Assembly: GCA_002245135.1 (NCBI GenBank)
Contig: NGBS01000010.1
Coordinates: 141,140-205,139 of the forward strand
Direction of reading: 5' to 3'
DNA length: 64,000 nucleotides
Source: Proteromonas lacertae
Lineage: Eukaryota > Sar > Bigyra > Opalinata > Proteromonadidae
Shown here: piece after piece, positions 6,781-53,291 of the stretch
How positions within the stretch are numbered: position 1 is the first letter of the stretch
How the letters are laid out: each line of letters begins with the position of its first letter
Position numbers and translations under genes: made by a program
Notes under the pieces: model-generated
Databases searched by the model: none
What the model was told of the DNA's origin: nothing
The model's input: the letters and a program-made list of their open reading frames with translations, nothing else

Positions 6781-9700
6781 ATGCTTACTTTAAGGCCAAT
6801 GATTAATTTGATCCTTATTCCTTCATTATTATTTATATTGGTTCAGTGTTCAGGTATAAAAATCGTATTAATTTGTTTAATAGTAGTTCCAGAATCTATT
6901 GTATTTATTGAACCTGTATCAAGTTCTTCAGCTGATTTGAAGTGGAATTATCCTGATATAGAGACTGTTAATGATTTAAAGTCTATAACAGCAATGTACA
7001 CAATAAATAAAGGTGTAGATGAAGTTCAAAAGCTTGAAATTAGAGTAAATGATGATCCAGGATGTGTTGATACAATCGAGACATATGCAAAACATATTGA
7101 TGAAGTACAGGCAATAGTGGCTTACATATCTGAAGAAAATAGAGAGAGTGAAATACAGATTATTACATTAATCCCACCATCAAGAGTTGAGTTGACAGAA
7201 CCATTTATTCTTCAGTACAGTCCATCAGACGAAGTACAATATCAAAGTGATTTATTACCAGTCAATATAACTGAAGAAGATTTAAAAGTGGAAATAGAAA
7301 AATTTCATTTAAGTGTAGAAAAAGTTGTAAAAATATCAACCAACGAATCATCATCATTAAACACTTTAATGTGGGAAATTACATATAATGAAACAATAGG
7401 TAATATACCACAGTTATATATCTTTTCAATGCAGGATAATACCAAATCAATCAGTACTACTAAGATAAATGGTAGTTCATTAAATATCAATTTTCATATA
7501 CAATATGGTAATGAAAATACAACTACAGTTTTAAATGCAGAAACAGCTACATCTTATGATATTCAGTCTGCATTATATTCATTACCATCTTATCATATTA
7601 TATCCACTGTCCATATGATTCAACCTGATTTGTTTAGTAAGATATGGATGATAACATTTGATGATATGAATTTGTATGGAAATATAGAGAATTTAATTAT
7701 CCATACTGTTGATGATATAAACAATGAAGATGTTAATATGACAGTATGTAGTGAAGATAGTAATGATTTATTATGTGAAAATATCGATACTATTAATGGA
7801 AATGAGATAGGTGGAAGTTTTGATATAATCATTAAAGATCAAACCTTGTCAAACCTATCATCAAAAATTACAGCAAATGAATTAGAAGAGAGATTATTGT
7901 CATTAAAAGGTGATAATAATCAAACTGTAGTTGGCGCTATCAAAGTTGAAAGAGAATTAATTTCCAGAGAATATGGTTATAAATGGACTATATTTTATAT
8001 TAATAATTCAAATCCACCAAAATTAGAGATTAAATCACATTTAACAGGAGTCGAAGCAAAAATATCATTAAGAAGTGAAAATGGAGAAGATCGATCAAGT
8101 GGGTTATATGAAGTAGGTGATTATCTATTTGGTGAATTTAGAATAGGATATAAAGGAAAATATACAGATTATTATGATTTAAATAGTATAGATTCAACTA
8201 TACAAATTGGATTAAGATCTTTATTTCAAAACGACAATATTAAAGTTGAATCTGATGTTAATAATAGAATAATGAATGAGAATTATGTATGGTCAGTCAC
8301 ATTTCCATCTGAAATGGGTATGATTGAAGCATTAACAATTGATACATCATTAATATATAATGGAACTGCATTAGGAATATCAACTATTAGAAACAAACCA
8401 GAAAAGCCATTATTTGAAGGAGATAATAACCATATTATAATGATCAATGATATAAGTGCAATGAAATATAGAATTAATGATTTAGAGAGTAATAAACCAT
8501 TATATTTTAAAGTTAAATTCAATACAATATCAGGTAATAATGAATATGAATATGATTTGGGTAGAATAATATGTAGAAATATGAAACCTTCTCCACCTGC
8601 TAAAGTATCATTAAAACAAGAACAACCTAATCAATTAAGTATAATTATTACACCAGGTAGTACCGATGGAGGATTACCAATCAATTTTATTGGATTAGAA
8701 ATGATGAAAGTTCCATTCGAGAATGAAGTTCAAATGATTGAATTAATTGGTAATACAAAATCAGAAATTCAAATGGTTCATATTACATATAATGATGATA
8801 GTAACAATGATTATTATTACTTGAAGTTATATGGTTATAAGACAGGAAGAATTTTACCTTCAACAATGGAAAATGGAATTAAATATCAGTTAGAACAATT
8901 GCCATTTATCAATACAGTGAAAGTGAGTAAAGTGTATGGTTCAAATAGAAAGGATATTAAATGGTATATTACATTTACATCCTTAAGTGGTAGATTTCCA
9001 ACAAGTAGTGGTAATATTGAAGAATTGAATTATGAGACTTCACCTTATTTTAAAGGAGAAATTGAAATACAAACAGTTGTAGATGGTCAAAAATCGATGG
9101 GTGGAACATTTAAATTGAATTTTGGTGGACAAATTACTAGTCCAATTCCATGGAATGCCTCTCCTTCCTATTTGAAATTAACTTTAGAAAAATTATCAAC
9201 AATTGGTGTAGTTGATGTTAGTTTGTTAGAATTCCCATCATCTAGACAGTTACTAGTAACATTTGTTGGATGTAGATTAGATGAAATTAGTGATGTTATA
9301 GTATGTAATTCAGGTCCACAATCATTATTTACTACAGATGCAAATCAATTAATTGGAGGAATGGTTAATATCGAAAGAATAAAAAGAGGATCTGGTGCTA
9401 ATATTGAAAGATATTCAGTCGATTCATTAGAAAAGAGAGAAAAAGATTTAGTTAAAGTTATTTCAATCACATCTACAGAAGAATTTATTATCGTGTAGCA
9501 TTAGAGAATAATATGGGATTGAGTTTACCAGTCATATCTACACCACCATCATTTTCCATGAAATCAAGTTTACCTGGTGAATGTAGTGAAATATTTGTAA
9601 AAAGTAATACTGTTACATCATTGTTTTTAGGATGGTTATCACCTATTTTGAATGGTCAATCTCCAATATTAGGTTATTTATTATATATGAATGATATGAG

Positions 9701-12700
9701 TGATAATAGTAATGATAATAATAATGGATATGAATTAATTGCCAATACAACTGCAACTGAATATAATGTTGATGGTTTAATAGAGAATAATATTTATAAC
9801 TTCAAAGTCCAAGCTTATAATGAATTTGGTGTAGGATTAATGAGTGGAGAAGTAACATTAGTACCACATCTATCATATACACCAGAAACACCATTTCCAC
9901 CACAATTAGTGACAATAATAAAAGATAATAACAACAACAGCAACATGATGATGATGATGAGAATAAAGTAAAAGCAAAGATAAAATGGAAAATTTCAATT
10001 AATTATGGTCCAAATATAATGAAATATTACATATTCAATAGAGATATGAATAATAATAATAAAGAGACATTATTAAAAGTTTATGAAGTTAAAGATATTA
10101 CTTTATATTATACAACAATATTAGATGATATGATATATGGTGAAAAATATAATGTATTTATTCAATCTATCAATGAAAGAGGTGTTTATAGTCCAAAGAG
10201 TTCAATAACAGAGATAATAATAGATACAATCCCATTAAAACCATCACAACCAACTATTAATAGAATTTCTAGCACAAATATAACTGTGAGTTGGAATAGA
10301 AATAAAGAATATGTTTTACCAGTATTAGGTTATAAGTTATATCAATTTATGGATATTGAAACAATAACTCCTGAAGTATATCAATTATCTATTAGTGGTT
10401 GTACTGGAGGTACATTCTCCTTAATATTGAATAATGATGATAATATAGCAACTAAAGATATAGGTTGTAATGCAAAAGCACAAGATATTGAAGAAGCTAT
10501 AAATGAATTACATAAAATACCAATTGTTAAAGTATCAAGTGATTTATCATCTTCATCTTCATCTTCATCAACAACGTTTCTTATTACATTTCCAAACCAA
10601 TTATCACCTGCTATTCCATTAAAAGTAGCATCTGGCAGATTAATAGGTGATAATGTTATTGTTAAGAATGAATTATATCAAAGTGGTTTTGTAGGTAGTT
10701 TAGTTTATAATGGTGTGAATAAACCAATGAAATTGAACACAAAGTTAGAAATACAACAAGGACATACATATTTGTATGTATTACAATGTTATAATGAATA
10801 TGGAGAAAGTGAATGGAGTATATCATCAGAGTTATTGACACTCTATGATAAACCATCTTCAACTTATTCATATGTCGATATTAATTCAACTATTCTTCCT
10901 ATTTCTACTGGATTTGCTGGTTATAGTTATGAAAAACAGAAGATTACATTGAAATCATATGGAAATATTGAAGGTAATTATACTGTATCAATTGGTAAAA
11001 ATGGTATTGGAAGTATAATGTTGAATGTTAATAGTAGTAAAAATGAATTAGAAAATTCATTAAACCAATTACAATTAAGTAATGGCGAATATATTAATGT
11101 ATATGTATCAAAAACAACCAACAACTTTATTACAGATTATATAATTACATTTAATGATTATGGAGATATACCATTATTATATATTATTAATAACAATATA
11201 ATAGGTGGAGAAATAGAAATAAGTGAAATAAATAGAGGTAGAGGTAATGAAGTATTAATAGTTCCAAGAAGTGAAGATAATAAACCAATCAATACAGTGG
11301 ATAGAGATGATGATAATACTGTTTATATTGGTGAAATATATAATAATAATAATAATGAATTTGTTACATCTACATCTTATTCTAGAGTAATTCAACCAAT
11401 AATGAATATACAACAATTACAAGTTTATAAATGTAATTATGATTCATATGAATATATATTATTATATAAAGATACAAAAGTAACTGGTGTTAGAATTGAT
11501 AGTGTAGAATCTATTAAAGAAGCAATTCTTTCTATTCCTTCTATTAAAGATATTGATGTTTCTTATGAAGTAATTGATGAAGATATGTCCTATTATACAG
11601 TTACATTTAACTCTAATTTTGGTGAAATGGATTTATTAGAACTTAGTTATGCTAGTGAAGATAGAGATTCAGTTGAATGTACTATAAATACAATATTATT
11701 ACAACAAAATAAACCAGAAATACAGAAAGTACATATACCAAAGAGTGATAGTTATAAATATATAAAAGTCACATTTGAAGATGAAGAACAATCAGCTATA
11801 ATTGAATCAGAATCAAATGTAGAAGAAATAGTTGAAAAAATAAGTTCAATTCCTTCAATTAAAGAAGTACAAGTAACAATTGTTAGTAGTAAAGAAGATG
11901 ATTCTTATGATTGGTTAATTACTTTTACACAGTTGAAGGGAAATGTCCCATTATTAAAAGTAGAACCTTCACCATCACTTATACAGAAAATAGAAATAGA
12001 ATCACAATCAACATTAACTGGTTCATTTTCATTTTTATATAATAATAAGAAATCTGATTCAATATCATTAACATCTACAAATGCAAATGATATGATTAGT
12101 AAATCATTAGAATCAATAATAAATACTCCAGTAGAAGTGAACAGGTTTATAAATAATGGAAATAAGTTGGAATTGTTTGTTACATTTTATGTAAGTAATA
12201 ATGATAATAAAGATGACATTTATAATTTATTATCAATAGATGAAACAGGTTTAAATGGTAGAAAAATACAATACAATATAACTACTGTTAATTCAAATAT
12301 AGAAGATTCATCATTCTTAGTTGATATTAATGATATAATCGTTACAGAAATACAATATGGAAATCCTAATTATCTATTAGACTATCATGTTGATAAAATA
12401 GGAGAATATAATATACATATATACCAATTAATACAAGGAGGATTATTAGGAAAATATTATAATAATATATACTATTATAAAGATCCAATAGTAACAAGAG
12501 TAGATAATGAATTGAATTTCAATTGGAATAATGGTATTGTTGTTCATAGAAAATCAGATTTAATTGCTGTTGAATGGCAAGGAAGATTAAAACCACCACA
12601 TTCTGATGAATTTATATTGTATTTAACATGTGATGATAAATGTAGATTATTTATAGATAATACTCTATTTATTGATATTTGGGATAAAGGTATTAATCAA

Positions 12701-15700
12701 GGATGGAATTATATTACATTAAATAAAGAGAAATATTATAAATTAAGAGTTGAATATATTGAAATGAGTAGTAATGCATATGTGAAATTAGAATGGAGTA
12801 GTTCATTATTCCATAAACAGATTATTTCAACAGAATATTTATATTATGATTCTGAGATAGTGAATAGTCCATTTATAGCAAATATAATACCTAATTATCC
12901 ATTTTATGTTTTCAGTAATATAATGAATGTTAAAGAGAATGGAATTGCAGGAATTGAAGATTCATTTATTATTCAAGCTTTTGATCAAACTGGTAATAAT
13001 ATAATAGAAAGCAATAATAATAATGTGAATTATAATGTCAGAATAGTGATGAATAATAAAGAATATCCAAGTAGTATTAAATATACAGAAAATGGTAAAT
13101 ATGAAGTAACTTATAATTTAACAATAGTTGGTGAATATACAGTATATGTCACTTTAGATGATAAAGATTTACAATGTGGAAATATAGATATTAATAATAA
13201 TAATAAATGTAGTCCATTTAAAATAACAATATCACAAGCTACAAGTTCATTAGAATATTCAATAATTGAAGGTTTAAATCCAACATACAACTACTTTGCT
13301 GGTTATAAATACTCATTTATATTTACAGTCTATGATTCATATCAAAATGTAATGAATAAAGGAGGAGATGAAGTAACATTAATGGTTGAGAATATTGAAC
13401 ATCCTATTTATTATTTAGCAAATACAACTGATTATAATAATGGAAGTTATGAATTATCATTTTCAATCAAAGAAGTTGGTCCTTACAGATTAATACTCAA
13501 TTTGAATGGTAAGAAGTATAACCATGAGTTATTAGATGAATATTTATACTTTATAAGATCAAATGTTGTTTCTCCATCTAATTGCCTTGTTAATGGATTA
13601 GATAATTATAATAATTACTCAACAAAATATTCATTTAATGTAATATCTATGGATGAATATGATAATATGAGAGATGGTAAATATGGCTGTATATTTGAAG
13701 ATAAAGAATGTACTGATGGTAGTATTGATACATTTAATGTGGAAATAACACATGTTGAAAGTGGTAATAAATACTATTCAAGTTCAGCTGTACATGTTTT
13801 ATCAATTAGTGGTATTAATTTGAGAGGAACATTTACATTAACATTCTATAATAAAACAACAACTAATGATATTCCATATAATATTACAGCTTATTCACTT
13901 CAAGCAATTATTAATAGTTTATATTATGATGAATATAGAGTATTAGTTGAAAGAAAAACAACAGAAACTGGATTTATTTGGATTATTACTTATTTAGATC
14001 ATTTTGGCGAGTGGTTACCCACAGTATTAACAATTAATAGTGATAAATTAGAAGCAAATGATGAAGTGAATGTAATAATTGATACTAGAGGAAAAGGTGG
14101 AATTTATCCAATATCATATGATTTACCAAATAAAGGATTATATTCAATACAAATCTATTATCATGGTAATAAAATCAATGAAAATCTAATTATCATCAAT
14201 GTGACTGGATCTACAATGTCAAGCCATTCTTCCTATGCTGAAGGTAATGGTTTATATTATGGAACAGCTGGTGAAAAAGCAATGTTTTATATCCATTCAC
14301 AAGATGAAAGATTACCAGGAGTATATCATTATTATCTTGATTATAAATTAAGTGAAGAAGAAAAGGAATTATTTAAACCAACATCACATACATTCGAGTG
14401 TAATGCTGTAAATGGTTTATTCTCATTGAAATATTTTGATTTCTTAGTGATTGATGTTGATTATAACACTACAATTGATGATTTCGAGAGAATATTAAGA
14501 TCTAATGATGTGTTGGGAAATGTAAATATTAGATTAACAGGTAATAACGGTAATACAATATGTTCTGGTGAAGAATTAACTATTACATATTCTACCTATA
14601 TATCTCCATTAGAAATACCACGAATTAACACTAATGATTTGAATGGTACAGTTGAAATGACAATGAAAAGTGAAGGATGTTCTGGTATAATGGGTGATTA
14701 TAAAATATCAATAAATGGAATAGAATCAATACCAATAAGATTTGATGCTAGTAAAACAGAATTAGAATATGCATTATCTAAATATACAGATTATTTATTC
14801 AATTATGAAGTGGAAGTTGATTATTTACACTCTACAAATACATCATTATATTCATTATATAAATTCTATACAATTTATTATTATGATTCTCCAATACCAT
14901 CTCAAAGAAAACCTTTTACATTATCAATGGATATTTCCTCCATAATAACGTCAAATGATATTAAACAACCAATATTGTATTTATCACATTTAAGAAATGT
15001 ATCTGCAGGTAATCCAAGACCAAAGGATGTAGATATCAATACATTATATTTGAGTTTAACTCACTTAACTCACAGAGTTCACAATATAGAGTATAAAATA
15101 AGTGATAAAAAGATACAATTATTGTATTGCACTGCTACAAGCGGATCATTTTCTATAGTTTATGATGGTTATTCAGAAGTTGAAATTACACCAACAATGA
15201 ATGGAGTGGAATTCTTAGAAATATTGAATGATCATTTTGGTTTAAGTGATATGACAATTAGTAATAAATATGATATATTATGTAATGGAATTGATAGTTT
15301 TATTTCTTCATTAAATAATAAGACATTCCCAACATTATTAATATCAAAGAATAACTTAAAGGATGGAGAATTATATTTTGATGTAATTCAAGAAGGAACA
15401 TTAGAATTAAAACCATTAGAAGAAAGTGATGAAGGTATTTATGAATATAGTTATATACCATACATTTCTGGTCAATATGAATTATCATTGAAGATGAATA
15501 ATTTGAATTTATATTATCCAAATACAACTTATATTTTAGTTAATTCTAGTAAACCATACGCTCCATACTCAATTCATGATTCAAAATCAATCGCATTTCA
15601 AGGACAAACTTATACATTCAATTTAGCTTTGTATGATGAATATAAAAACAAATATGAATCAAGAATATTAGTGAAATATGAAAAAATAACAGCTTATTTG

Positions 15701-18700
15701 TTAAATATAAATAATAAAAATAATGATAGAGTTATAGCAGATATTGAATTATCAATTCCATATACATTTGGTAACTATACAATATCATATATTCCACCTG
15801 ATCCAGGTAGTGGTGATTATTTATTATATGTTAATTTAATTCAAAAAGGAGGATTATTGAGTTATTATTATGGTTCAATAGATTTCCAATTCTTAAAACT
15901 AGGTGATTTATATCATTGTCCAATTGGTACAATAATATGTGATTCTACAAGAATTGATAATAGTTTGAATATGAATTGGGGTTTATCATCTCCATTAGTT
16001 GGTTTTCCACCTGATTATTTCACTGTAAGATGGGAAGGATATATTATTGCACCAGAAGATGATATTTATACATTAACATTTGAAGGAGGAGATAAGTTAA
16101 TGATTTATATTAATAACACTGTAGTATTGAATGATTGGATAGAAAACATTGAATCAAAGATTCATGTAGTGAATGAAATTCAATTAAGTTCTACTGAATT
16201 AATATCTATTAAAATAGAGTATTTAAGTTTAAGTGGTGATTCAGAAGCTAAGTTATATTGGAATTCAAGTGTTATAAATCCAAAAGAAATTATTCCATCA
16301 GATTATTTATATTATGAACAACATATTCATAATATTCCATTAGGTATTACAATTCTACCAGGTAATTTATCATCAGAAACAACAACAATAGAAATAGACA
16401 ACGAGAAAGAATATATAGCTGGAAATATGGTAGAATTTGATATAATATCAAGAGATGAAAGTAATATGATATTATATAATCAAGGAAATATTAATTTTGA
16501 TATTGTTATAAAAGATTCAAATAATAAAGTGGTAGAAAATACAATTATTCCATATGATTGGAATTTATTATGTAGTAAATGCATTCATGCAACTTACAAC
16601 AGTACCACATTGACTGTATTTTATATTGTAAAAGATAGTTTATTAATTGGTGATAGATTATCAATAAACAATGAAATTGTGATTGTTTCAGATATTTCTA
16701 TTAAATATATTACCATATCAAAACCATATCAAAGTCAATCCATTGAATATACTGATTTATATAAAGTAGGAAATAACACTGGCATTTATCATTCATCATT
16801 TATACCAACAGTAAGTGGTAGATATGAAATAAATGTAAATACTCCAAGTTTGAATGAAGTTCAAGTATTTACATTAACATCTAAAAGTCCAATTTATGGA
16901 TTTATTTCATTTATTAATAATGATAAAATATCTGAAGATATATCTGTTGATGGTAGAATAAGTGTAATGGAGCAAATGCTTAATAATATAATAGATAATG
17001 GTAAAGTAGAAATTGAAACAAATAATATCAATGATAATGAAAATGATAATTACCAAAAACAATGGATTATTACATATTTAATGAATAATAATGAAAAAGC
17101 ACCATCTTTAGTATTAAATACAGAAAGTACATTAGGAAATAATCTAACAAGTACATTTGAAGTATTACAGAAACAACAGTTAAATATCCCAGTAAAGAAT
17201 AGTCCACAATATATTACAGTTATTCCAGATATTACATCATCCAAACATTCACTTGTTAGTGGTAGTGGTTTAGGTAAAAGTGTTGCAGGAAATGATTTAT
17301 TATTATATATCCAATCAAAAGATAAATATAATAATAACAGATTAGATTCACAAGAAAGAGATTTTTATGAAGTTAATATATTCTCTATTAATCCAAATAC
17401 TGAAGATGAAAAGGTAATCACATTACCTGTAAGTTATATATCGAACGGAAGATATAGTACAAATTATACATTGAATGAAACTGGTGTATATACAGTAGCT
17501 GTATCATTATCAACACAATATTCAATACAACAGATTATATCACCATTAGCACAGAATGAATCATGGTGTGTAATGTTGAATAATAAGACAAGTGCAATAT
17601 TATCACCATTTATAACAAGTGATGATTTATCAATAGCAATAACACAATTGAATGATAATAAACATGTTGATGTGTCATTTGATCTTCAAGAGAAAATATA
17701 CACTATTACATTCAGTTCAATAGTAGGAAATACACCATTATTATCTGCATTTACATATGATAATAATGAAGCAATTATATGTAAAGAAATACAACCAGGC
17801 AAATCAGTGTTAGTAGGTAATGCAGATTATATAAAGTATGAAACTCAAGTAATAGCAATAGATTGTGCTAATATGAAAGGATATTTCAAATTATCATTTA
17901 AACATTATACTACAGAACCATTATACATAGATAATGTAACTGATGTAGAAATATCCACTGCTTTGAACAAATTAAAACCAATTAATAGTGTAACAGTAGA
18001 AAATGTAATAAATACAGAATCAATAAAACAATATAAAATCATATTTAATCCTATTGAAGATGACAATATAAAGTTAATCACAAATGTTGGTAATTTACCT
18101 ACAATTCAAGTAGATAAATCACATTTAGAATGTTCATCTTATCATCCTATAACCTCAACATTTGAAACTAATGGTGAATATCCATATTCAATAGAAATAA
18201 GTGCATCTGATGCTGTTAGTAGTAGTAAAACAACAATTTTCCAAAAAGAGAATGGTGGATTAACACAAACAACAGCTAATGAAACATCATCATTTTATAT
18301 AACATTAAGAGATGAATATTCTAATTTAGTGACAGTTCAACCAAGAAATGAAATACAATTATTACATGTTCCATATTCCAATTTATTCCAATGTAATTAT
18401 ATCATTACATTTAATAATGAAAATAGTAGAGATATTGCATGTAGAGCAAATGAAAGTGAAATAGAATATGAAATTAACAGAATACCATCAATTGGTTATG
18501 TGAAAGTAGAAGTATATGATAATAGTTCAAGTGATGAATATACACTTTATGCAATAACATTTATTACTTTATTAGGAGATATACCAACATTATCAGTGAA
18601 ATCAGTTGAATTAGGTGGTAGTATTAGATTATATGGATGCAATATCAATAATGTACAAAAGATAAGTATTACTGGAGATTTAGGAAATACAATAACTGGT

Positions 18701-30700: not shown

Positions 30701-33700
30701 AATTCAATCATTAGATTGTGAATTTTCATTAGATGTTAAATCAACTTCTGATGATTTGGTTTATTATTTAGAGAATGTATGTCAATTGGGTAGAATTAAT
30801 GTAGTGAAACAAGATATTTATAATGAATATCCAGTAATGATTGGTTATAGATGGATTATTAACTTTGAAACCTATCCAGGTGATTTACCATTGTTAAGAT
30901 TTATGGAATTAGAAAGTTTCAAAGGTTATTTTGAAGTGAATGAAATAGAAAATGGATATTTAGCAAAGAACAAAACAATAATAAATTATGAAAATATAGA
31001 AGTTGGAAATAACTATTTCGTGAAAATATCTGCAAATAATTCATTGGGTAGAAGTGTTGAAACTACAATGAATAAACAGAATATAGGTGAAGGTGTAAAT
31101 CCAGTAGAATTAAAAGCACATTATCGACCAGAATCACCTGTAATTGATAATTATTATACATTAAGTCCAAGTGAAATAGAAATATCCTATCATCCAAATG
31201 GAGATAGAGGAAGTGGTATAAGTGAATATAAAATAGAATGGTTTGAAGAGAATTATAAATTGTCAGTTATTTCTTATACAATTGAATCTAATAAAAATGA
31301 TAATTTAGTATTTGGTAAATATCAAATACAATATAAAACAGCTCATACATGGTATTTAGAGTATAATTCAACAGCTGAAGAAGTAGAAAATGCATTAAAT
31401 ATGTTAACTACAATCCAATCAACTGTAAGTGTAAAGAGAGAAGATATAAAGGGATTATTAGGTTATAAATATACAATTACATTTGATTTGGATGTAATAG
31501 ATGAAAGAAATATCAAAGAATTTAAAGTATTAGATTCAAGATTATACAATCATAAAGTAGTAGTATTTGGTATTGAACAGAATAGTAGTTACAAGTATTA
31601 TGATTTACAGAAACTAACAATGGATAGTAATCAATGTGGAGGATTAATTGATAATCAAATAGAAAGTGGTGTTTGTGTTTTAGGAACTCCAGATATACAA
31701 TCAATTGTATTAGAATATTACAAAGATGATTCTATTCCAACATTAAGTGGATATTTCACATTGTTTTATAATAATACTGAATCATCACCAATTAAACCTG
31801 ATATATCATCATATGAATTAACTCAGTTATTATTTAATGATTTTAATTTCAAAGTGAAAGTACAAAAATCAGAAGAAAAAGAATATAAGAATGGAAAAGA
31901 AAATGATTTCTATTATAGAAAATTGATGGTTAGAGTATGGTATATTGAAGTATTAGAACCAACAGGAACAATTGATTTATTAGTACCAAAATATAACCAT
32001 TTAAGAGGACAATCAGCAACAGTGACAATAATGAGAAGTGTATATTCATCAATGTCAGATTTAAAGAGTGAATTAAATTGTCAATTCAGATTAGAATTTG
32101 GTGTATATCAAACAGAATTAATATCGTATGATGTATCTAATGATTTGTCAAAATTGAATAAAAATATTGAGAATAGAGTGAATGAATTAGAGATTGTAGA
32201 TACAACATATGTTTCAGTATATCAACCAAAGATGGAATTACCAGGAAGATCTTTTATTACATCAATAAATCCATCAATTATAGTATCACATACGTTAGAA
32301 TGGGAAATACAAGAAGGTGAAAATATCACATTTTATGATGATGTATATACAGTTGTTGAATGTAATGTAACAACTGTTACTATTGAAAAGATAAAGGATA
32401 ATGATAGTGATGATGATGAGGAGATAATACCACAATATATACTTAATTGGTTTAAGAATAAAGAAGAGTTTAAAGTGAATAAACTAATCAAAGGATTTTC
32501 ATTTTATATAATAGCTAAAGGTAATAATTTGAATATAAATTCATATAATTTTAAATTGTACAATTATGGAGGTAGAAGTATGACGTTGAATAATAGATTA
32601 AGTTATGGTACAAAACCATATACATTTAGAATTGGATCTCCATTATTTAAATATGATGTAACATTTGATCCTGCAATTAAGGACTTGAAAGAAACTAAAT
32701 TAAAGTCAATAATGATTGGAACTAATATGAAATCTCAAGTATGTATAAATATTGGTGAAGATAAATTGATAGATGAAAAGGATAATTATGTTAGTTTTGA
32801 ATGGAATAAAGTGTATGATGAATATATTTTGAATATTAACTTTTATAAATATTATGAAACAGTAGTGAAATATGTAGTTGTTACAGGTAATTATACAAAA
32901 ATCAATTGTCTTAATGTTGAAGAAGAAGAAGAAAGTGAAGGATTAGTTGAAAATGATGAATATGAAAATGATGAACTTGATGATATTGAAATAACAATCA
33001 AAGAGAATCTAAATAATAGAAACATGAATGAATTTAATCACTATTTCTTATCTCATTCCTATTCATTTTTATTCAATAAGAATAATTATGTATTACGTTT
33101 ATCAGCAAAGAATGATTATGGATATAGTAAACCATATTATATGAAATTAGAAAAACCAAATCTTAATACATTACCATCAAAACCAACATCATTAACAATC
33201 AAACAACAATATAATTCATCATCTGTAGAAGTATATTATCAACCACAATTATACGATGGAGGTGAAAGAATATCTAAATATCGAGTGGAATATGATATAT
33301 CTCCATATTTCAATACTTCTGAAAGAAAACAGAAAGACATTTACAGTATTCCTGAAATACAAAGAATTGTAACTAATTTGAAAGAAACTGATAGTTTTAT
33401 AGTAAATTGGAATGGAAATAGTGTTAGAATATTAAGAAGTGATAATTTAGAAACAATTAGAAACAAATTCGATGAATTAATTAGTAAGAATACAATTCAA
33501 AATGATATAACAATATATGTTGATTATGAGACTAATTGTTACTATTCTACTTATACAGTTACATTCAATAAGATATGTGGAAGTGTAGGAGTTATGGAAG
33601 CTGAAATATCACCAATAACAAATGATGGTAATAGAAATAGTTATATTTATGTTTATAGATTACAGAAAGGAGAATGTAATATTGTACCTAATGATTATAC

Positions 33701-36700
33701 ATATGAAAAACAAATGTTGAGGTTTAACAGTCACAATAGCTGTAAATATAAATTATTATTTGAAGGTGTATTAACTGAAACTATAAAATATACTTATTCT
33801 AATCCAAGAGATAATAAAGAGAATATAGAAAAAGCCTTAAAAGGATTAATTACATTATATAAGTTTGATGTTAAATATGAATCAATGGGATTATATTCAA
33901 TCAATCTACGTCATTTAAATCATGAAATAAATGAAGGATATGGTGAAAATGTATATATTATTCCATTTATAGAAGATGGAGGATGTGATATAACAACTTA
34001 TAAACAAATACAAGGATCTTTACCAAAGACAATAATTATTAGTGATTTAACTCCATATATTACATATTATTATCGTGTTCAAGCATTTACAAGAAGAGGA
34101 TGGAGTGAATTCTCAGAAGTACAAAGTTATACAACATATGATAAACCATCCACACCAAAATCAATAAATGTTACAGTTACAGAAACATCATTATTAGTAG
34201 AATATGAACAAAGTGAAGATAATGGAAATTCTGAAATTACTCATTATGAATTTGTTATTTATGAATCTGGTATATATGAAGTACAAAGAGTATCAATTGG
34301 AAGTGGTGATTTAAAGGTTGATGAAAAGAGTATTTATACTGAGAAACAACGAGTATTATTCTATTATGATGATAAAGAAGATGATTTATTAAGTGGATCG
34401 TTTATGATTGCCTATAAGAATGAAATAACTCATCCAATATATTACACAAAAGATAAGGATGAATTAGCAAAAAGAATAGAATATTCAATTAATCTATTAT
34501 ATATTTTAAGTGGTTCAATAGTAAAATGTTATAATGATTATGATGAATTAAAGTATGTTGAATGTGATATTGATTTCCACTCCAATTTTGGTTATGATGA
34601 ATATATAAATGTAACAACTTCTCATGATTTTAAAGGACATATTGGTGTTTCAAGTATTAGAAAATCAATACCAACAATTGGAGGATATTTCTCCTTATGT
34701 TATTTACCAAATAATGATATAACTGAATGTACTTATAATTTACCATATGATGTAGAAGCTGATGAAATGAAAATAGCATTAGAATCATTGAAATCATTGA
34801 ATGAAGTGAAGATTAATAGGTTTAGAAGTGGACATGGATTTGATTGGTATATTACGTTTAATGGTAATTGTGAAGAAACACCATTATTGTTATTAAATAC
34901 AGTTCATTTAGCTGGTGTATCAACGAATGGAAAAGTAACAAGAATTCAGCAAGCTAAGTTTGTTGGATTGAATAAAACAAATTTAGAACCATCCAATAAT
35001 AGATTTGAAATTATTAATGTAGATGATGATGTGAATTATAAAATAATGATTAGAGCCGTTACAGAGAAAGGATTTAGTTATTTCAGAAAGAACTTCAATG
35101 ATAATAATGTTATTGCTGGATTAATACCAACAAAAGTAACAAATCTAACAACAATTGTAATGTCATCTAGAATGTTGAAAGTAGTGTTTAATTCACCATT
35201 AAAATCATTTGGATCTGATGTAAATGCTTTTATTATAGAATGGGATTATGAATATGATTTTAGAAACGTTGAGAACAACAGTTGGAGTTTCACATTAACT
35301 AACTTAACCAATTTCAAGAATTATGATAAGTATTGGTATAATATCTATTTACCTGATTCAAAGACATATTATATTCGTGTAGCTGCAGTTAATAGTTTTG
35401 GTATAAGTGAATGGGATAAAGTATATGATACTCCAATGAACAGAGCACCAGCAAAACCAAAGGATATTATATTGACAGTTGCATCTCCAACTCAGTCATA
35501 TGTTACATGGATGAATTCTACAATAGATTCAGATGTATTTGGTGGAGATGGTGGTAGGCCAATATTGTATTATAAAATAGAATATAGTAATGAAACATCA
35601 TTTAAGAATGCAATATTATTGAATGTATGGGATGATAGTAATAAATATATAATTGGTAATAGAAGTATAGAAGATGGAAGTAGTTCAGAATTCCCAAAGA
35701 ATGTATATGTTAGAATATCTGCAGTAAATGATATTGGTATTGGTGATGCTGGTAATGGTAAATGGGAAGATATCGATTTAAGTGTTAGACCTCCATCTAC
35801 AATACAAAATATAACAATAAGTCCAAAGAAAGAGAATTCATTCTTTATTGAGTGGGAAAGTCCATTTACTGATGGTGGATCTCCAATAGTTGGAGTTTTG
35901 ATTAAGTATAGTCCAAATAAGACATTCCCATATCAACAAACATATGAAGTTCATTTGCCAGTTACATCTCCTGAAAGAATTGATCTTGTAATAAAGAAAA
36001 AGAAAGATCAAAAATCATCATTTACAATAAAACCAACAAATTTAGAAGAATTGTTAAATGCTAGAGAAAGTAGAACTAGAAGAAGTAGAAGATTATATAG
36101 AATAAAAGAAGATCAATCTGATGATGATGATGAAATATTAGTAAAAAGACAAAATAGAGATAAAAAATACACAGAAGATGATGTTTATACAAAAGATGAA
36201 TTTATAACAGAAGATTTCTATACAAATGATGATAATTATACTGAAGATGATAATACAACTGATGAAGATGAATTTACAGATGAAACAACTGAAGAAGAGA
36301 CATATTCAACCATTGATGAAGCAACAACAACTGAACCACCCATCCTTCCAGATTATCCTGATGAGATTGAAATAACAGTTGGTGATAATGATTCATATAT
36401 ATTAAATATAACAGAAATAGAGGATGAAGAAGGAAGAGAGAGAATAAGAAAGAATTTAGAAGATTATTTGAAAGAAATATTTGAAGGAGATGGAATGTTG
36501 GTAGAAGTAAGAATAGAAGTTGTGTATTTAAATGATATGAATGTATTGCCTGTAGTAACAAACACTTATATATTAGGATATAAGTTTATCATCCGATTCT
36601 ATCATTTTAAGAATGGTTATCCAGATGGAACTTGTTATTTTTATCCAACTATAAAAATTACAGGAATGGAAGTAGAAATTGAATCTTATTGTACAAGATC

Positions 36701-39700
36701 TTTGAATTCATTATACATGTCATTATATTATGGTGAAAATGGTGATAATATCAATACTAGATCAGTTGTTGATGATGAAAATCTTGAACATACTGAATCA
36801 GAGGAAGAAGAGGAAGATGAAATAGTTGATGGAGTATTTAAGATTAATTTCAATAATAATAAGAACTTCTTGAAAGAAGTAAATAGAATATCTAAATATG
36901 GAAGTGCAACAGTGAATGACAAGCCAGAATTAATATCATCAACATTGATTGAAGTAAATTCAAAGTTAATTAAATCAAAAATGAGTAATATTACAGAATC
37001 TGAATTCTATATTGATGATATAACCAAATTCTATGTTGGTCAAAAGATAAGAATATTACCTAATAGTCAACAGATAAATGATTATAATGATATCTTATTA
37101 GGAACTTACAATGTAACATCTTCACATTCTTTGTTATTAATATCCAAAGAACCATTATATTATATTACATCAATGGATGATATAGTTAGAATCAATGGTA
37201 GATTATGTGAAATAATAAGTTACACTAATATAACAATTGAAATAGAAGAGAAATGCAGTTTCTTAGTTGGTGAACAACATATAGTCAGTAAATTGCCTAG
37301 AATTTACACAATTAAATCAGTAAGAAAAGAAGATGAGACTGTAGAATCAAATAAAAGAGGTTTTATTGTATTAGATCAATTATTGGATATAAAGAGAAGT
37401 GATAATGATAATGTGAATTTGAAATTAGCATTTTATGAAATGGATGGAATAAGATTCTTAATTCATTATGATAATCCTTATCAAAAGATGGATCCAATTC
37501 AAATAAGAACAATTCCTGATTTATCAGAAAATGAATTACATAATTTAATAACAATATCTCATGGTTTTATATCCAATTATACTTTAGAAGTGATTTATCC
37601 AAGATATTTGAATTATTTATATTATTTCCAAATACAAGCTTATTCAATCTACAATGATGAAGTGTTGTATTCTGAACCGTCTTTACCATTACCAACCTGT
37701 TATTTAGTTGCAACACCTCCAAAACCATTGAATTTTGAAGTGAGTAGATCAAATCATGTAGATGAAATACAAAGAATTACTTTATCATCAAAATTCATAC
37801 CAGAAATAAGAAATATCTCAGTAACAGCTCCATTTATTAAAGAAATACAAACAATACATACAACTGCTAAACAAGGTATGAATCATACATCAGATTTTGA
37901 TATTTATTTAACACTTCCAGAATCTCCTTACAAGAAAGATAAAACAGATGATGACAAAGAAACAATAAGTGTTTCAATGAGAAATACTATATATCAAGTG
38001 AGATTAACAGATATAGAAGGAAATTTACCAACAGGAAGATTTTATTTAATAGAAGAATCGTTAGATGATGATGAAGAAGAATTATATAAAAGAGAAAGAA
38101 CAAGAAGAATGAATGAAGATACAACTGAAAATGATGATAATGATAATGAGGTTCAGACTCCAAGTGATATTAAAACTACACATATATGTGTTGATCTTGA
38201 GGATGATAATAATTTGAATTTATTATATGCAAAAGTATACAAAGAAATAACCAAAGAAAATGAAATTGTTTATTCATTTATCTATGATAATCCTTCAATG
38301 ATGATAAATGTAACTAATCATGAATTTTGTGTATTAAATGAAGGAAGTAATTATGAAGTAGATTATAATTGTAGAGATTGTGATTATTTATCATCTGATA
38401 TAAGTGAAGAAGATTTGAAATATCGATTTGATTTTATCCCTTTAATAGGTGATATAACAATACATCGTAGTGTAGAAGATATTTTTAATGGTTATTTCTG
38501 GACAGTTTATTTTGATAGTTATGTTGGTAATTTCGATGATATGAAATGTGAGGTAAAAGATAAAGAAAATACTTCATGTGATGTTAGAACAATACAAGAT
38601 GGTAATGAAATAGGAGGTAACTTTAGTTTATCAATAAAAGATGAAGTTGGAGCAGTTACAACATGTAATTTAGATAGTAATTTTGATGTGGATGAATTGA
38701 TTGAATGTTTACATTATAATATTGAAGTATTTAAGAAAGAAGAAGATGAGAATATTATGGGTCATACATGGTTAATTACATTCATAGATGATAATATTGG
38801 TGATATTGAAGAATTTACATTCAATTCTTACAATTTGTTAGGTGTAAATGTAACTCTATCAATAGAAACAATTCAAAATACAAATTATCTAAATGGAAGT
38901 TATAATTTGATATATAATGATGAATCAACAGTAGATATAGAATATGATACAACATCTGAAAGAATAAAAGAAGCACTAGAATCATTGGAGAGCATTAATA
39001 GAGTTGATGTATTATTAAAAGAAGTCAAAGTGAATTATAGAAGTTATGATATAACATTCATAGACACTAAAGATGAAAGTGAAGATGTGGAGTTATTAAG
39101 ATATAATAATAAATTGAATGGAATTGATAGTTCAATATTAGTTCAAGAAGTAGTGAAAGGAGCATCACATAATGGAAATGAATTAAGTGTAAGTTTTGAG
39201 CCATCTTCAACATTAACATCATTATTGAATGGATATACAATTAATTATGAAGAAATTGATTTAAAGAATAAGAATGTACTTAGATGGAAAGAAGAACCAT
39301 TAGTATTAAATGATACTGAATTTATGTACAGAATTGAAACAATTGAATGTAAAGGAAATAGTCCAAAATATCCTTGTGGAAAATCACCATCAGATACATT
39401 CCAATTACAATTCGGAGATGAAATGACTGAAGAAATTCCATATAATGTTGATGTGATGAAATTGAGATTAATTTTAGAAAAATTAAATGGAATAAAAGCT
39501 GTATCAGTTAAGAGAAGATCAATCGGATTAATGTCTGAAAGAATTGGTAGATTAGAATCATATAAAAATAATTCAGATATTCCTAATATAGAATTGAATG
39601 AAGGTTATAATCCAAGTAGAATGTGGATAAATGGACATGAATATTGTATGAGAGGAAGATATTTCACAGAATGTAATTATCCATATGGTAAAAGACATCC

Positions 39701-42700
39701 ACCAGAAAAGACTGATATTTATATAGATACAGGAATAAGATGGGAAATTACCTTAATAGGAATATCATCAGAAATAATAAACAACCCATTAATCAAATTA
39801 TTCTCTCATATTGACAACGAAAATACTCAATTGAGATTATACCATCAGAAGTGTAATAAATGTTATTATATAAAATCATTAACAGCTGGTAGAACATATA
39901 ATGTATCATTAACACCTGAAACTGGATATTTATCAGGTATTCCAAGTTATACAGTAGGAATTCCAATGCAAATACCTGATAAGCCAATCATAACATCATT
40001 TGATGTAATATCAATGAAAAGATTAGAAGTATATTGGAAAGAACCAGAATCAAATGGTGGATCAAATATAACATATTTTGATGTTGAATTATGTACAAAT
40101 GAATATTTCACTAATTGTGTTTATCAATTGAGAGTGAACTATAATCAGAATATATCAGATTATCATTCAGTATTTTATGAATTGAAAGAAATCAATTATT
40201 GGGTAAGAATAGCAGCAAGAAATGAAGTTCCACCTGAGAAGATAGTAGTAAGTAAAGAGAATGAAATAGATAATACAAATTGGGCAGTAGAAGGACCAAT
40301 AATGCCAATTAATATATCACCATTTAAACCATCCAAAGTAGAAGCATTTAATATAAGAAATGATACAATTAGATTAATGATAAGTGAACCATTTAGAAAA
40401 GGAGGATTAAAATTAGAGTATTTTGATGTAAAGTATTGGATAAAAGAAGATGAAGATAAAGTAAATCCAATAGTGAATGAAATAAGCTTAAAAGTACCAA
40501 ATATAACTAGATTTAAAACAAAATATCATTATAGACAGTATTTATATGACATTGATGGTTTAATACAAGGAAAGAATTATTCATTTATAGTAAGAAGTGT
40601 TACAAATAGAGAAAATGGATTTATTAGTAATTATACTGAACCAATATATGAAGTACCAAGAAATGTTCCAGATATTCCAAGAAATTTAACCGTTTTATCA
40701 CATAATTTAAATGATGAGATAGATCCATATTCGTTGAGAGTTAGTTGGAATAAACCAGTAAATGATGGTGGTTATGAAATAACTTATTATGTATTACAGT
40801 ATTATAAATCAAATATAACAATACCAACCAAACATTCAATATCTTGTACAAGTGATATATTATTTAATGTTACTTATTATCCATATGTGAATGAAACTGT
40901 AAAAATAGAAAATCTGAATGTTAGTAATAATCCATATCATATAAGAAAAACAATTATGAAATCTCATTCATATTTTAAACCAATTGAAATAGTATATGAC
41001 TCGTTTAACCAAATTAATATAACATATGAATGTAATACAAATATAAGTGGTGGAGTAAGAGATATTAAGTTAGAAAGTAATGATTTAAGATATAAATGTT
41101 CATTTAATAGAATTAATAATGGAAGTAGAGCTGGAGGTTATCATCGAATTAATTCATTTATATTATATGGAGATAAAGTAAACAGTTGGTTTAGACCAAT
41201 CATAGGAAATAAAAAAGAAGAAGGTAATTTAGTGAAGTATGAAAATTGTAAAGAAAGTGGAAGATTATTAGCTGAATCATTAAGTCATATGAAGTTAATA
41301 GGTGGAGAAGTAAATGTAAGAACTAAGACTTTAGAAGAAGATGAATTATCATTGAAATGTTATTTTGAAGTAGAATATGTAAAGAATTTCGAAGATGTAG
41401 AAAGATTAGATATAGAAGTAATGGATTATATGTCATTAAGATATGTAGAAATACCTGTATTAGATATATGTAATGATGAAGTTGATATGAATGAATTATG
41501 TAGTAATAATCATCCAAATGCACATTTTGCAGAAGTTCCTGAAGGTTATAAAGAAATAATTATAAAGGAGAGAGATGAAAATGATGAACTTATAACAAAA
41601 TATGAAATAAAAGATTTAATCGTAGGTCAACCATACAGAATAAGAATATTAGCTGTAAATGATGAAGGATCAAGTTATCCATTAGAAATCAATAAACCAT
41701 ATATAATACCATTAGTTAGACCTGATCCACCAATGAATATAAGATTAAATTATACAAAGAGAAGAGATTGGTTATATTTGTATTATGATGAACCAAAATC
41801 AAGTGGTAATTTACCAATAATAAAATATGAAATAGAATGGTGTTATGATAAGATATTCTATAATAGTCATTTATTTAGAGTTAATATAAGTAATGTAGTT
41901 TATGATAGTAATGATATAAGATGTCCAGAATATAATAATCCATTGGTTTATATCTTAAATACAACAATAATTGCTAATAAACCTAAATCATTATTGATTG
42001 ATGATGATGATTATGATAATTACATGGATAATTCTTACTTTACATTAGAAATAAAGATGAAAGATAATGATAAAATATATGAAACAAAACCAATTTCATT
42101 AAACAAAATAGTTGGTGAATCAAATGAAGAAAATGGTGATAATATATATGATTCTGAAGATGAAAAATCAATTGGATCTTTACAATCAATATTATATGAT
42201 CAATTACATTTATCCAATATAAATGTACAAAGATATAGTAATGAGAAGAATATGTATTTTGAAATAACATTCTTGGAAGAGAGTAATATTGAATATTTCA
42301 TAGTAAAGAATGTAACAAATAAAAATATTCATTTAAATGTAAAGAATAACACTGGAGTGTATTACAAATATTGTGTTGGTAAAGAAGATCAACCATTATT
42401 GTTAATAAATATAAATAAGAGTGTATTATACTATGTTAGAGTTAGATCAATGACAGTATTAGGATATAGTGATTATGGTTATGCATTGGAAGGAATAAAA
42501 CCCAAAATAATCCCATCAGCACCAAGTGATGTTAGAGTGAAAGTATATAATGGAAGTAGATTAATATTGACATATAATAGTCCAGTAGATTATGGAAGTG
42601 ATGATATAGATTATTATGAAATAGAAATTGATAGAAATCCATTATTTAATTCTGAATCAATGAGAATAATTAAAAATACTGAGTTGAAAGTGTTGAAAGA

Positions 42701-43538
42701 TAGTTTTATAACTTATATTGACGATATAGAGAGTGGTATCAATTATTATATAAGAATAAGATGTCATAATAGTGTTGGTTACAGTGATTATAGTGAAAGT
42801 TATCCTAATACAATAATAGCTTATAATAAACCATCCAAACCAATGAATTTATATATGAATACAACATCTGATAGTATAATAACTGTTAGTTTTGATAAAG
42901 CATTATCTAATGGAGGTGATGTGTTATTATATTATCGAATTGAATGGTCAAATAAGAAAGATTTCCATCCAATCATTGGAAGTGATAAAATAATTGATGA
43001 TGGTAGTAATACATATCATTATTTAATGAAGAATTTAGATGTAAATAAATATTACTATGTTCGAGTAGTTAGTATTAATAAAGAAGGTGAAAGTAGTTAT
43101 TCAACAATAAGAAATAGTTTAAAACCTCATTTGTGTGTTCCAGGTAAACCAATAATAAAATTATTAGAAAAAGTGAATAAGAATACAATTCATATTCGAA
43201 TATCAGGTCCAAATTTACCTTATCATGAGATAGAATGTGGTAATAGTGATAATAAAGTAGAATCTTGTGGTTGTAATAGTAAAAATGAAATAGTGAATAT
43301 ATGTAATGGTGGTTCTAGAATATTATTTAATCGAATATATTTGAGTGATAAACCATCTTTTGAAAATGTTCGAGAATTTGATAGAGAAGTAATAACAAAT
43401 AGTGAATATAGTGATGTGTATATAGAGAATGTGTTAAGTGGAAAATATTATTTGAAAGTGTCTTGTCATAATTCAATAGGAGGATCAAAATCAAATGATA
43501 AAGATGAGAATAATAATAAATTGGAAATAAAAATATAA
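6781..43538 (+). CDS. Giant secreted FN3/PA14/filamin-type protein (~12,200 aa)
   Basis: One gene of 36.76 kb. The first ~22 residues are a signal peptide (hydrophobic LILIPSLLFILVQC), and an in-frame 30-nt intron at 6854-6883 (GTATAA to ATAG) follows directly; no other intron is evident. The frame is broken at ~9484, ~9950 and ~27,805, each repaired by a one-base change, so four open stretches (6781-9498, to 9971, to 27820, to 43538) read as one protein. Domains: tandem ~85-residue modules and FN3 (residues 1-1800); three PA14 domains (about 1875, 3010, 4105) alternating with filamin-like repeats; then FN3 domains to the end, many holding nested modules. NxS/T sites are abundant. No C-terminal membrane span is seen, so secretion or a cell-surface matrix/adhesin role is inferred, not shown. 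Confidence 0.85.
7150..8360 (+). repeat. Tandem copies of the ~85-residue module
   Basis: About four degenerate copies of the module follow one another between the first FN3 half-domains of the giant protein. Each copy shows a GxFxLxF-like strand, a helix of the AxxLxxxLxxL type, a V-x-V strand and a WxITF-like core (seen here as WEITY, WMITF, WTIFY and WSVTF). Confidence 0.6.
12433..12850 (+). other. PA14 domain 1 of the giant protein
   Basis: About 140 residues opening GGLLGKYYNN, with the PA14 hallmarks VEWQGRLKPP, a YLTCDDKCRLFIDN core and KLEWSSS near the end. PA14 is a beta-barrel often found in adhesins and glycan-binding or glycan-processing proteins. Confidence 0.85.
12950..14215 (+). 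other. Filamin-like repeats, one with a nested module
   Basis: Three Ig/filamin-like repeats follow PA14 domain 1, with motifs such as FIIQAFDQTGN, NGKYEVTYNLTIVGEYTVYV and NNGSYELSFSIKEVGPYRL. In the third, a complete module (RGTFTLTFYNKTT to FIWIITYLDHFG, about 13,790-14,100) sits between the filamin N-terminal strands and its closing GLYSIQIYYHG strand. Confidence 0.65.
15841..16320 (+). other. PA14 domain 2 of the giant protein
   Basis: Opens GGLLSYYYGS and contains VRWEGYIIAPEDDIYTLTFE, a LMIYINNTVVL strand and AKLYWNSS, closing with IIPSDYLYY. It is slightly longer than domain 1 because of an insert near its start. Confidence 0.85.
19129..19545 (+). other. PA14 domain 3 of the giant protein
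   Basis: Opens RGGLIGNYYDN and contains IKWNGYIQTPFSEDYVF, KADDGVEVTFNN and AEIHLYWRS, closing with IIPSNRLF. It marks the border between the PA14/filamin third and the FN3-rich remainder. Confidence 0.85.
35985..36350 (+). other. Polybasic then acidic low-complexity linker
   Basis: Interrupts the FN3/module array of the giant protein. It starts with KKKKDQK, then has an Arg cluster (ESRTRRSRRLYR, about 36,064-36,100), followed by ~60 residues rich in D, E and T with repeated TEDD/TDE elements. It resembles an exposed hinge with possible dibasic protease sites. Confidence 0.7.
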
Positions 43539-49804: not shown

Positions 49805-50147
49805 AAAAATGATTTTAAATAAGTGTTAAACTTGGGGAGAATCCAAGCCTACTTAACATTGTATTAATTTTTGAGCTCATTTATAGTTAAACAAAAGAAA
49901 TGATATGATTATTTATAGTATGTTACAAAAATACATACAGCTATGGTTGAATCAATCATTTGAAATGAAAAACATGTGTTTTTAGTATTATCAAGATCTG
50001 AGTTTTGAGATTTCTTTCAAATTCTTTTTTTTATATCTAGATATATAATGAATTTAGGTAGTCATATACGATCTATATATAAATGTTCGTATAACTACGT
50101 GCATATATATATTTTTTAGTGTTTCTAGATCAGTTGTTTCACCAATT
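49805..50147. promoter_or_regulatory. Divergent intergenic region, CSA and presequence protease
   Basis: 343 bp between two divergent start codons, A/T-rich. It has several TATA-like stretches (for example near 50037-50050 and 50105-50115) and no motif I can assign to a factor. Confidence 0.35.
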
Positions 50148-53100: not shown

Positions 53101-53291
53101 ATGAAACTCCAGAATTATTAGAAAAGCAAAAACAGCAGATAATTTCTTGTACTAAAGAAGAAATACTACAATCTTATAAAGAGGTATTAGAACCAAATAT
53201 AAATCGTTCTTCACATGCAGTATGGGGTACAAAACGTAATTGCCCTACATACAAAGCATTAAATTGGGATGTGTTGGAGATTTCGACATGA
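50148..53291 (+). CDS. PITRM1: Presequence protease (M16C metalloprotease, PITRM1/PreP type)
   Basis: Degrades cleaved mitochondrial targeting peptides in the matrix. Two introns (50204-50233, 30 nt; 51714-51764, 51 nt) leave ~1,020 residues (human 1,037). Splicing the first gives a basic, Ser/Arg-rich N-terminus suited to mitochondrial import. The inverted zinc motif HILEH is at spliced residues 99-103, followed by the family signatures NTYMNASTYCDRTAYPF, GIVFNEMKEYLYHPE and SHYHPSNCLFYTSGD. The C-terminal half carries the REIRENQGAYG-type segment (HSEIRENQGAYGTSCG), which forms part of the substrate site. It is complete, with no frame break. The gene is divergent from CSA and followed in tandem by a PIG-Y-like gene 168 bp downstream. 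Confidence 0.93.
51711..51764. repeat. TA and TTA microsatellite intron
   Basis: The second intron of the presequence protease gene is almost wholly a TA run followed by seven or eight TTA units. Confidence 0.8.

What the first reader, a model, noticed from the sequence alone, without database searches (positions are those of the whole stretch)
6781..43538. A ~36.7-kb single gene for a ~12,200-residue secreted multidomain protein
Four long open stretches join into one protein with a signal peptide, three PA14 domains, filamin-like repeats and FN3 domains to the end. It fills more than half the window and has one tiny intron just after the signal peptide. Size and domain mix suggest a giant adhesin, surface coat or matrix fibre. 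No C-terminal anchor is visible, so how it stays on the cell, if it does, is open.
Basis: partly seen in the sequence, partly recalled or inferred. Interest (0 to 1): 0.8.

Follow-up and report, generated by a model that had tools for sequence, protein, structure and literature searches.

The report
Giant secreted protein with phage-like domains
A single gene filling more than half the window most likely encodes a roughly 12,200-residue secreted protein of an unstudied family known from water moulds and a diatom, and it carries about 40 copies of an uncatalogued domain that also occurs in the outer proteins of bacterial viruses, many of them inserted into loops of its rod-like modules.

The parts
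6781..9498 (+). piece E1 of the giant gene: start codon, signal peptide, first two FN3 modules with six GSF domains
   Evidence: N-terminal part collinear with P0004, P0033, P0044
6781..6853 (+). signal peptide coding part (exon 1)
   Evidence: best 12-residue hydropathy 3.09, none of 6 later blocks of E1 reaches it; not SignalP
6854..6883 (+). 30-nt intron GTA..TAG, in frame
   Evidence: same type as six flanking introns of 28-51 nt; P0004 and P0033 N termini have no counterpart by eye
9456..9498 (+). frame break J1 (frames overlap here)
   Evidence: all six listed GT-AG introns (18-109 nt) that restore the frame lose part of the FN3 segment YYRVALENNMG that relatives keep (by eye)
9456..9971 (+). 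piece E2: FN3 module and start of the next
   Evidence: Pfam fn3 E 6.7e-11
9932..9971 (+). frame break J2 near simple repeats
   Evidence: one-base break, or an intron such as 9909-9940 (32 nt); six options listed, not resolved
9932..27820 (+). piece E3, 5962 codons: GSF clusters, three PA14, filamin repeats, FN3 array with GSF inserts
27795..27820 (+). frame break J3
   Evidence: P0005, P0035, P0040, P0045 are open across it; twelve GT-AG options exist, but they remove residues that P0005 aligns by eye
27795..43538 (+). piece E4, 5247 codons to the stop: FN3 arrays with GSF inserts, acidic linker
12437..12847 (+). PA14 domain 1
   Evidence: (i-E 2.7e-45), Pfam
15848..16315 (+). PA14 domain 2
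   Evidence: (i-E 2.3e-40), Pfam
19130..19543 (+). PA14 domain 3
   Evidence: (i-E 6.9e-47), Pfam
12941..13231 (+). filamin-like repeat 1
   Evidence: Pfam Filamin, and Ig_GEX2_N below its cut-off
13295..13516 (+). filamin-like repeat 2
   Evidence: i-E 1.6e-6
17279..17515 (+). filamin-like repeat 3
   Evidence: i-E 3.8e-19
7204..8361 (+). four GSF domains inserted in FN3 number 1 (halves 6901-7119 and 8428-8520)
8812..9363 (+). two GSF domains between the halves of FN3 number 2 (8587-8796 and 9483-9551)
10409..12268 (+). five GSF domains; no FN3 C-half detected behind them
13826..15367 (+). four GSF domains between filamin repeats and PA14 2, no FN3 halves detected
16919..18934 (+). five GSF domains between PA14 2 and PA14 3, no FN3 halves detected
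19667..27466 (+). FN3 array (about 14 modules by my reading) with six GSF domains
21992..23017 (+). modelled unit: one FN3 with two GSF domains in its loop (GSF at 22136-22444 and 22517-22855)
   Evidence: AlphaFold2 models
28008..35981 (+). FN3 array with eleven GSF domains
36072..36092 (+). basic RTRRSRR in an acidic linker, possible convertase site (pattern only)
38352..39602 (+). four GSF domains
39975..43496 (+). C-terminal FN3 array; last module ends 13 codons before the stop
   Evidence: matched by P0008, P0012, P0013, P0049

Best explanation
One gene makes one secreted, membrane-free chain of about 12,200 residues: an extracellular fibre or coat protein. Shown by sequence or model: signal-peptide-like N terminus, extracellular-type domains, no second strongly hydrophobic segment, collinearity with single-frame relatives at both ends, GSF domains nested in one FN3 loop in at least seven places. 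Inferred: the FN3 modules form a long rod; loop-inserted GSF domains stand out sideways in groups, giving a side-armed ('bottle-brush') fibre with a large lateral binding surface; the PA14 modules, a class that often binds sugars (recalled), hold glycans of the cell's own coat or of a substrate; retention is by such non-covalent binding or self-association, which is why no anchor is needed. That other lineages appear to make the same parts as separate proteins suggests that the parts act together in one assembly.
Against: No expression, localisation or binding data for this protein. The Saprolegnia class A relative found here is SPRG_04153, not one of the proteins in that paper. No relative as long as the whole chain was seen. 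N termini were judged by hydropathy, not SignalP: later blocks reach the same value in P0013 (2 of 65), P0050 (4 of 66), P0004 (7 of 65), P0053 (13 of 66), P0048 (19 of 65) and P0043 (39 of 57); the P0044 model has no hydrophobic start. P0052 has a hydrophobic stretch at its C terminus, and P0004, P0027, P0040, P0044, P0048, P0051 and P0054 each have an internal one. Sequons (174) lie within the range of 100 shuffles (mean 156, maximum 182). Three large GSF clusters near PA14 show no FN3 halves, so not all GSF are side arms of FN3. Some metagenome gene ends may be intron edges, so some splits may be artefacts. Three frame breaks leave a small chance of decay. The nested model has pTM only 0.51.
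Confidence: 0.66

Rival explanations
1. The frame breaks are real: the gene is a young pseudogene, or its product is made as shorter proteins.
For: Three breaks in 36.7 kb; the intron options at J1 lose a conserved FN3 core.
Against: Frames of 5962 and 5247 codons remain open; domain order is kept to the last module; single-base breaks in a 1181-contig draft are usual errors. The error rate in other genes of this genome was not measured.
Confidence: 0.12
2. Two or three adjacent genes: as in some relatives, the part from about 29.4 kb (E4 ~535) is a separate secreted protein.
For: Oomycete-type relatives start a protein there; J3 lies 1.6 kb upstream of that point.
Against: The frame is open from 27795 to 43538; no hydrophobic segment near 29.4 kb; P0005, P0035, P0049 and P0051 are open across that point.
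Confidence: 0.1
3. The protein is not an adhesive or coat but a shed matrix, mucilage or house component, or a scaffold for polymer capture.
For: Acidic (pI 4.7), PA14, no anchor; relatives in a diatom and in oomycetes, which live very differently.
Against: No catalytic domain in Pfam at E 1e-3.
Confidence: 0.22
4. A flagellar hair (mastigoneme) protein.
For: Stramenopile-type distribution of named relatives.
Against: [quoted passage not shown] no EGF match here.
Confidence: 0.04

Closest known systems
Giant oomycete and diatom proteins named 'Fibronectin type III domain', 'Titin' or hypothetical (P0004 Phytophthora infestans, P0040 P. nicotianae, P0043 Globisporangium ultimum, P0044 SPRG_04153, P0045 Aphanomyces euteiches, P0033 Thalassiosira profunda)
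   Same: Order of GSF-bearing FN3, PA14, filamin repeats, FN3 array; about 20-33% identity over long blocks.
   Different: In the window the chain also includes the part that oomycete-type relatives make as a second protein; very long branch in trees of three blocks; about 470-830 residues where P0008, P0012 and P0013 have about 2,170-2,590.
Class B oomycete-type proteins (P0013 Plasmopara halstedii, P0048 Pythium brassicae, P0008, P0050, P0052, P0053)
   Same: Collinear with E4 towards the C terminus.
   Different: Start as separate proteins, with hydrophobic N termini of varying strength.
Bxb1 gp23 tail-tip cage, major capsid and tail-tube domains (PDB 9d93, 9d9x, 9d9w, 9d94)
   Same: GSF domain: sequence profile (cage, capsid) and fold (all three), including the leading EVQ strand in the cage.
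   Different: There part of a virion; here in FN3 loops of a eukaryotic secreted protein.
Insulin receptor FN3 with an insertion (8dtm and others)
   Different: The insert is not a GSF domain (recalled); a single case, not a repeated plan.
Animal titin / twitchin
   Same: Giant FN3 chain; animal titin or twitchin proteins are among the hits (for example P0007, E 8e-100).
   Different: No kinase or I-set match in the window pieces; signal peptide here.

Membership tests
oomycete/diatom giant PA14-filamin-FN3 protein (class A) | three PA14 domains at collinear places | tested here: met
   three in E3, three in P0001, three in P0004 (the two relatives printed)
oomycete/diatom giant PA14-filamin-FN3 protein (class A) | collinear order over thousands of residues against a reversed control | tested here: met
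   for example P0044 1296 vs 646 bits, P0004 999 vs 594; not beaten for P0046 (808 vs 818)
oomycete/diatom giant PA14-filamin-FN3 protein (class A) | N-terminal signal peptide followed by FN3 | tested here: met
   window: (hydropathy, not SignalP); in relatives clear for P0033, weak for P0004 and P0043, absent from the P0044 model
class B giant FN3 protein | collinear C-terminal part and same C-terminal end | tested here: met
   (P0012, P0013, P0048, P0049)
class B giant FN3 protein | starts as a protein of its own with a signal peptide | tested here: not met
   window E4 is open through that point with no hydrophobic segment: here it is fused
GSF domain of phage tail and capsid proteins | sequence profile | tested here: met
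   E 9.1e-33 (profile of 5 window and 18 relative copies); window-only profile 60.4 bits on SWU2 gp27 and 30.7 on Skog sheath, nothing on the neighbour gp28; best reported shuffle 2.6
GSF domain of phage tail and capsid proteins | fold | tested here: met
titin / twitchin | Ig I-set domains and kinase | tested here: not met
   none at E 1e-3
stramenopile mastigoneme protein | EGF-like domains | tested here: not met
   definition from PMC12223298 passages
PA14/GLEYA wall-anchored yeast-type adhesin | C-terminal GPI or membrane anchor | tested here: not met
   no hydrophobic segment at the C terminus; feature recalled
secreted adhesive of spores or cysts | extracellular location and adhesion | not testable with these tools
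   no experiment available for this protein

The most novel reading that the evidence does not exclude
A single mobile surface module, unrecognised by Pfam, is shared by tailed-phage virions, large bacterial proteins and stramenopile cell-coat fibres, and in these eukaryotes it was multiplied largely by insertion into one FN3 loop, so that phage and protist surfaces use the same building block through ancient transfer.
Probability: 0.45. Interest if true: 0.78.

Novelty: new variant of a known kind. Interest (0 to 1): 0.6.

Why it matters
A secreted protein of over a megadalton, with relatives in oomycetes and a diatom, for which my searches found no published study. It names a concrete candidate for the little-known adhesive or coat material of such cells. 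The shared phage domain links virion proteins with eukaryotic extracellular proteins and would give a name to many uncharacterised repeats in giant proteins. Fusion in some lineages and separate parts in others predicts that the separate oomycete proteins form one complex, which can be tested.

Tried and rejected
Introns as the cause of all frame breaks: GT-AG options of 18-109 nt were listed (6 at J1, 6 at J2, 12 at J3). Those at J1 lose a conserved FN3 segment, those at J3 remove residues that P0005 aligns by eye, J2 stays open. Programmed frameshift: no clear slippery site seen by eye; opposite shifts at J1 and J3; not tested further. Mastigoneme: rejected. Titin membership: rejected. GSF as a named family: Pfam best E 0.0063 (an RRM model), PHROGs best 0.018 (tail sheath, with the consensus). 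GSF, FN3 or PA14 in 210 kb of other stretches of this genome: none, but that is 0.4% of it. tRNA and Rfam scans of the window: nothing. Papers: searches returned nothing; one search listed 2 and one search listed 4 papers with no bearing title; others (12 of 21 listed; 10 of 103 listed) gave the papers cited; one search listed phage papers. Passages of PMC12221091 and PMC3471859 hold no word on fibronectin, PA14 or filamin; passages of PMC13033339 did not bear on the domain. The Bxb1 structure paper is not held. Host taxonomy, paralogues and genome-wide frame-error rate could not be tested because the genome search did not complete.

Rows dropped: one search chained 16 of the 39 proteins; left out were 23: P0007, P0009, P0010, P0011, P0014-P0024, P0028-P0031, P0034, P0036, P0038, P0039 (animal titin/twitchin types and others that I judged outside the family). 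One search chained all 16 new ones. One search used 11 relatives. Alignment A1 used 8 of the 12 relative units printed.

Full report
1. What is there. The window (74% AT; G000, 50.2 Mb in 1181 contigs; a eukaryote by its introns and genes) holds four overlapping open frames on the + strand: E1 6781-9498, E2 9456-9971, E3 9932-27820, E4 27795-43538. Frames of 5962 and 5247 codons are not chance at this composition. The pieces sum to about 12,263 residues, 1.41 MDa, pI 4.7.

2. Gene structure. A 30-nt GTA..TAG intron at 6854-6883 lies just behind the signal peptide; six introns picked by eye in flanking genes are 28-51 nt, all GTA..TAG. Three frame breaks remain. GT-AG introns that would restore the frame can be written for each (6, 6 and 12 options), but at J1 they lose a conserved FN3 segment and at J3 residues that P0005 aligns, judged by eye; these two look like one-base breaks. 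J2 may be a one-base break or a 32-nt intron. Draft errors are the simplest cause; the error rate elsewhere in this genome was not measured.

3. One gene. With best collinear chains of BLASTP matches and a reversed-order control, forward order wins in 14 of 16 relatives (not P0026 and P0037) and 15 of 16 (not P0046, 808 vs 818 bits). Margins are small for P0035 (341 vs 322), P0006 (548 vs 498) and P0047 (199 vs 189). Eight of the 32 (P0001, P0002, P0004, P0006, P0033, P0043, P0044, P0046) match E1, E2 and E3 in order within one protein, covering J1 and J2; four (P0005, P0035, P0040, P0045) match late E3 and then early E4, covering J3. P0035 also aligns with P0005 at 39% identity over 2682 columns. 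P0004, P0033 and P0044 match near the N terminus; P0049 reaches residue 5246 of 5247 at the C terminus. No relative covering the whole chain was seen; candidates above about 10,400 residues were outside the range, and one search scored only 675 candidates.

4. Domains. Pfam reports fn3, PA14 and Filamin. PA14 lies at three places that correspond in P0001 and P0004. The FN3 profile gives 48 segments in the four pieces, which I read as about 35 modules, many split. A further domain recurs, here called GSF: consensus GTFTLSFNGETTAPIPVDASADELKAALESLPTIGSVSVTRSGSSSSNGYTWTITFLSNLGDVPLLTVDSSSLTGQKI. Of 149 strong copies in window and relatives, 70 have an EVQ-I-like strand within 18 residues upstream. 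In the window 41 copies score at least 5 bits (6 in E1, 20 in E3, 15 in E4) and 39 pass i-E 1e-3. No Pfam model recognised the three copies and the consensus tried.

7. Relatives. Named ones are oomycetes (Phytophthora infestans, P. nicotianae, Nothophytophthora, Globisporangium, Saprolegnia SPRG_04153, Aphanomyces, Plasmopara, two Pythium) and the diatom Thalassiosira profunda. FastTree trees of three blocks give the window a very long branch (1.6-2.5) outside the named oomycetes, with uncertain placement. The host is therefore perhaps a deep, AT-rich stramenopile-like lineage; this is inference.

8. Fusion and splitting. P0008, P0013, P0048, P0050, P0052 and P0053 begin near E4 535 with a shared (V/A)PGPP start, P0051 earlier, P0035 near E3 4554 and P0005 near PA14 2, whereas the window, P0005, P0035, P0049 and P0051 are open across E4 535. 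Hydropathy supports a signal peptide clearly for P0008, P0035, P0051, P0052 and P0005 (no later block reaches the value) and weakly for P0013, P0048, P0050 and P0053. If parts can be separate proteins in one lineage and one chain in another, they likely act in one assembly. Against a wholly soluble reading of the family: P0052 has a hydrophobic C terminus and seven relatives an internal hydrophobic stretch.

9. Function. The protein has extracellular-type modules, no anchor in this window, and PA14 modules. The nearest experimental hints: giant secreted FN3 proteins of S. parasitica (6547, 9440, 5297 aa) that rise from 0.02-0.04 in mycelium to 4.60-16.44 in cysts and are proposed as possible components of attachment hairs (PMC5771568; section 21 and passages), and anti-fibronectin staining between aggregated P. 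parasitica zoospores (PMC7409359; passages). Neither is shown to concern orthologues. I commit to a secreted side-armed adhesive or coat fibre, about two in three.

10. Novelty. The family exists in databases under misleading names; my paper searches (listings, not all papers seen) showed no description of it. The repeated GSF-in-FN3 plan and its link to virion domains appear undescribed within those searches and Pfam.

Noticed in passing
6545-5800 (minus strand): A proteasome beta subunit gene (PSMB2-like, name recalled) with short introns, divergent from the giant gene, start codons about 235 bp apart.
   Followed up: partly
50058-53291: PreP-type M16 peptidase whose frame is interrupted by a 51-nt in-frame intron ending in TAG.
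   Followed up: partly
60170-60841: Frame with a Temptin C-terminal domain (E 2.2e-15).
   Followed up: no
2-2404: An 800-residue frame without Pfam match, cut by the window start.
   Followed up: no
36066-36400: Basic RTRRSRR and a long acidic low-complexity linker between two FN3 arrays; a second RTRR near 38097; possible processing sites by pattern only.
   Followed up: partly
L002 1484-3466 and PDB 9d93 chain Ma 270-610: In phage SWU2 gp27 and Bxb1 gp23 GSF N-halves precede C-halves, as if GSF domains were nested in each other; EVQ strands stacked in P0004 and P0012 hint at the same in the eukaryotic relatives.
   Followed up: partly
window 1-64000: The window is the last 64 kb of a 205,139-base contig of G000.
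   Followed up: no
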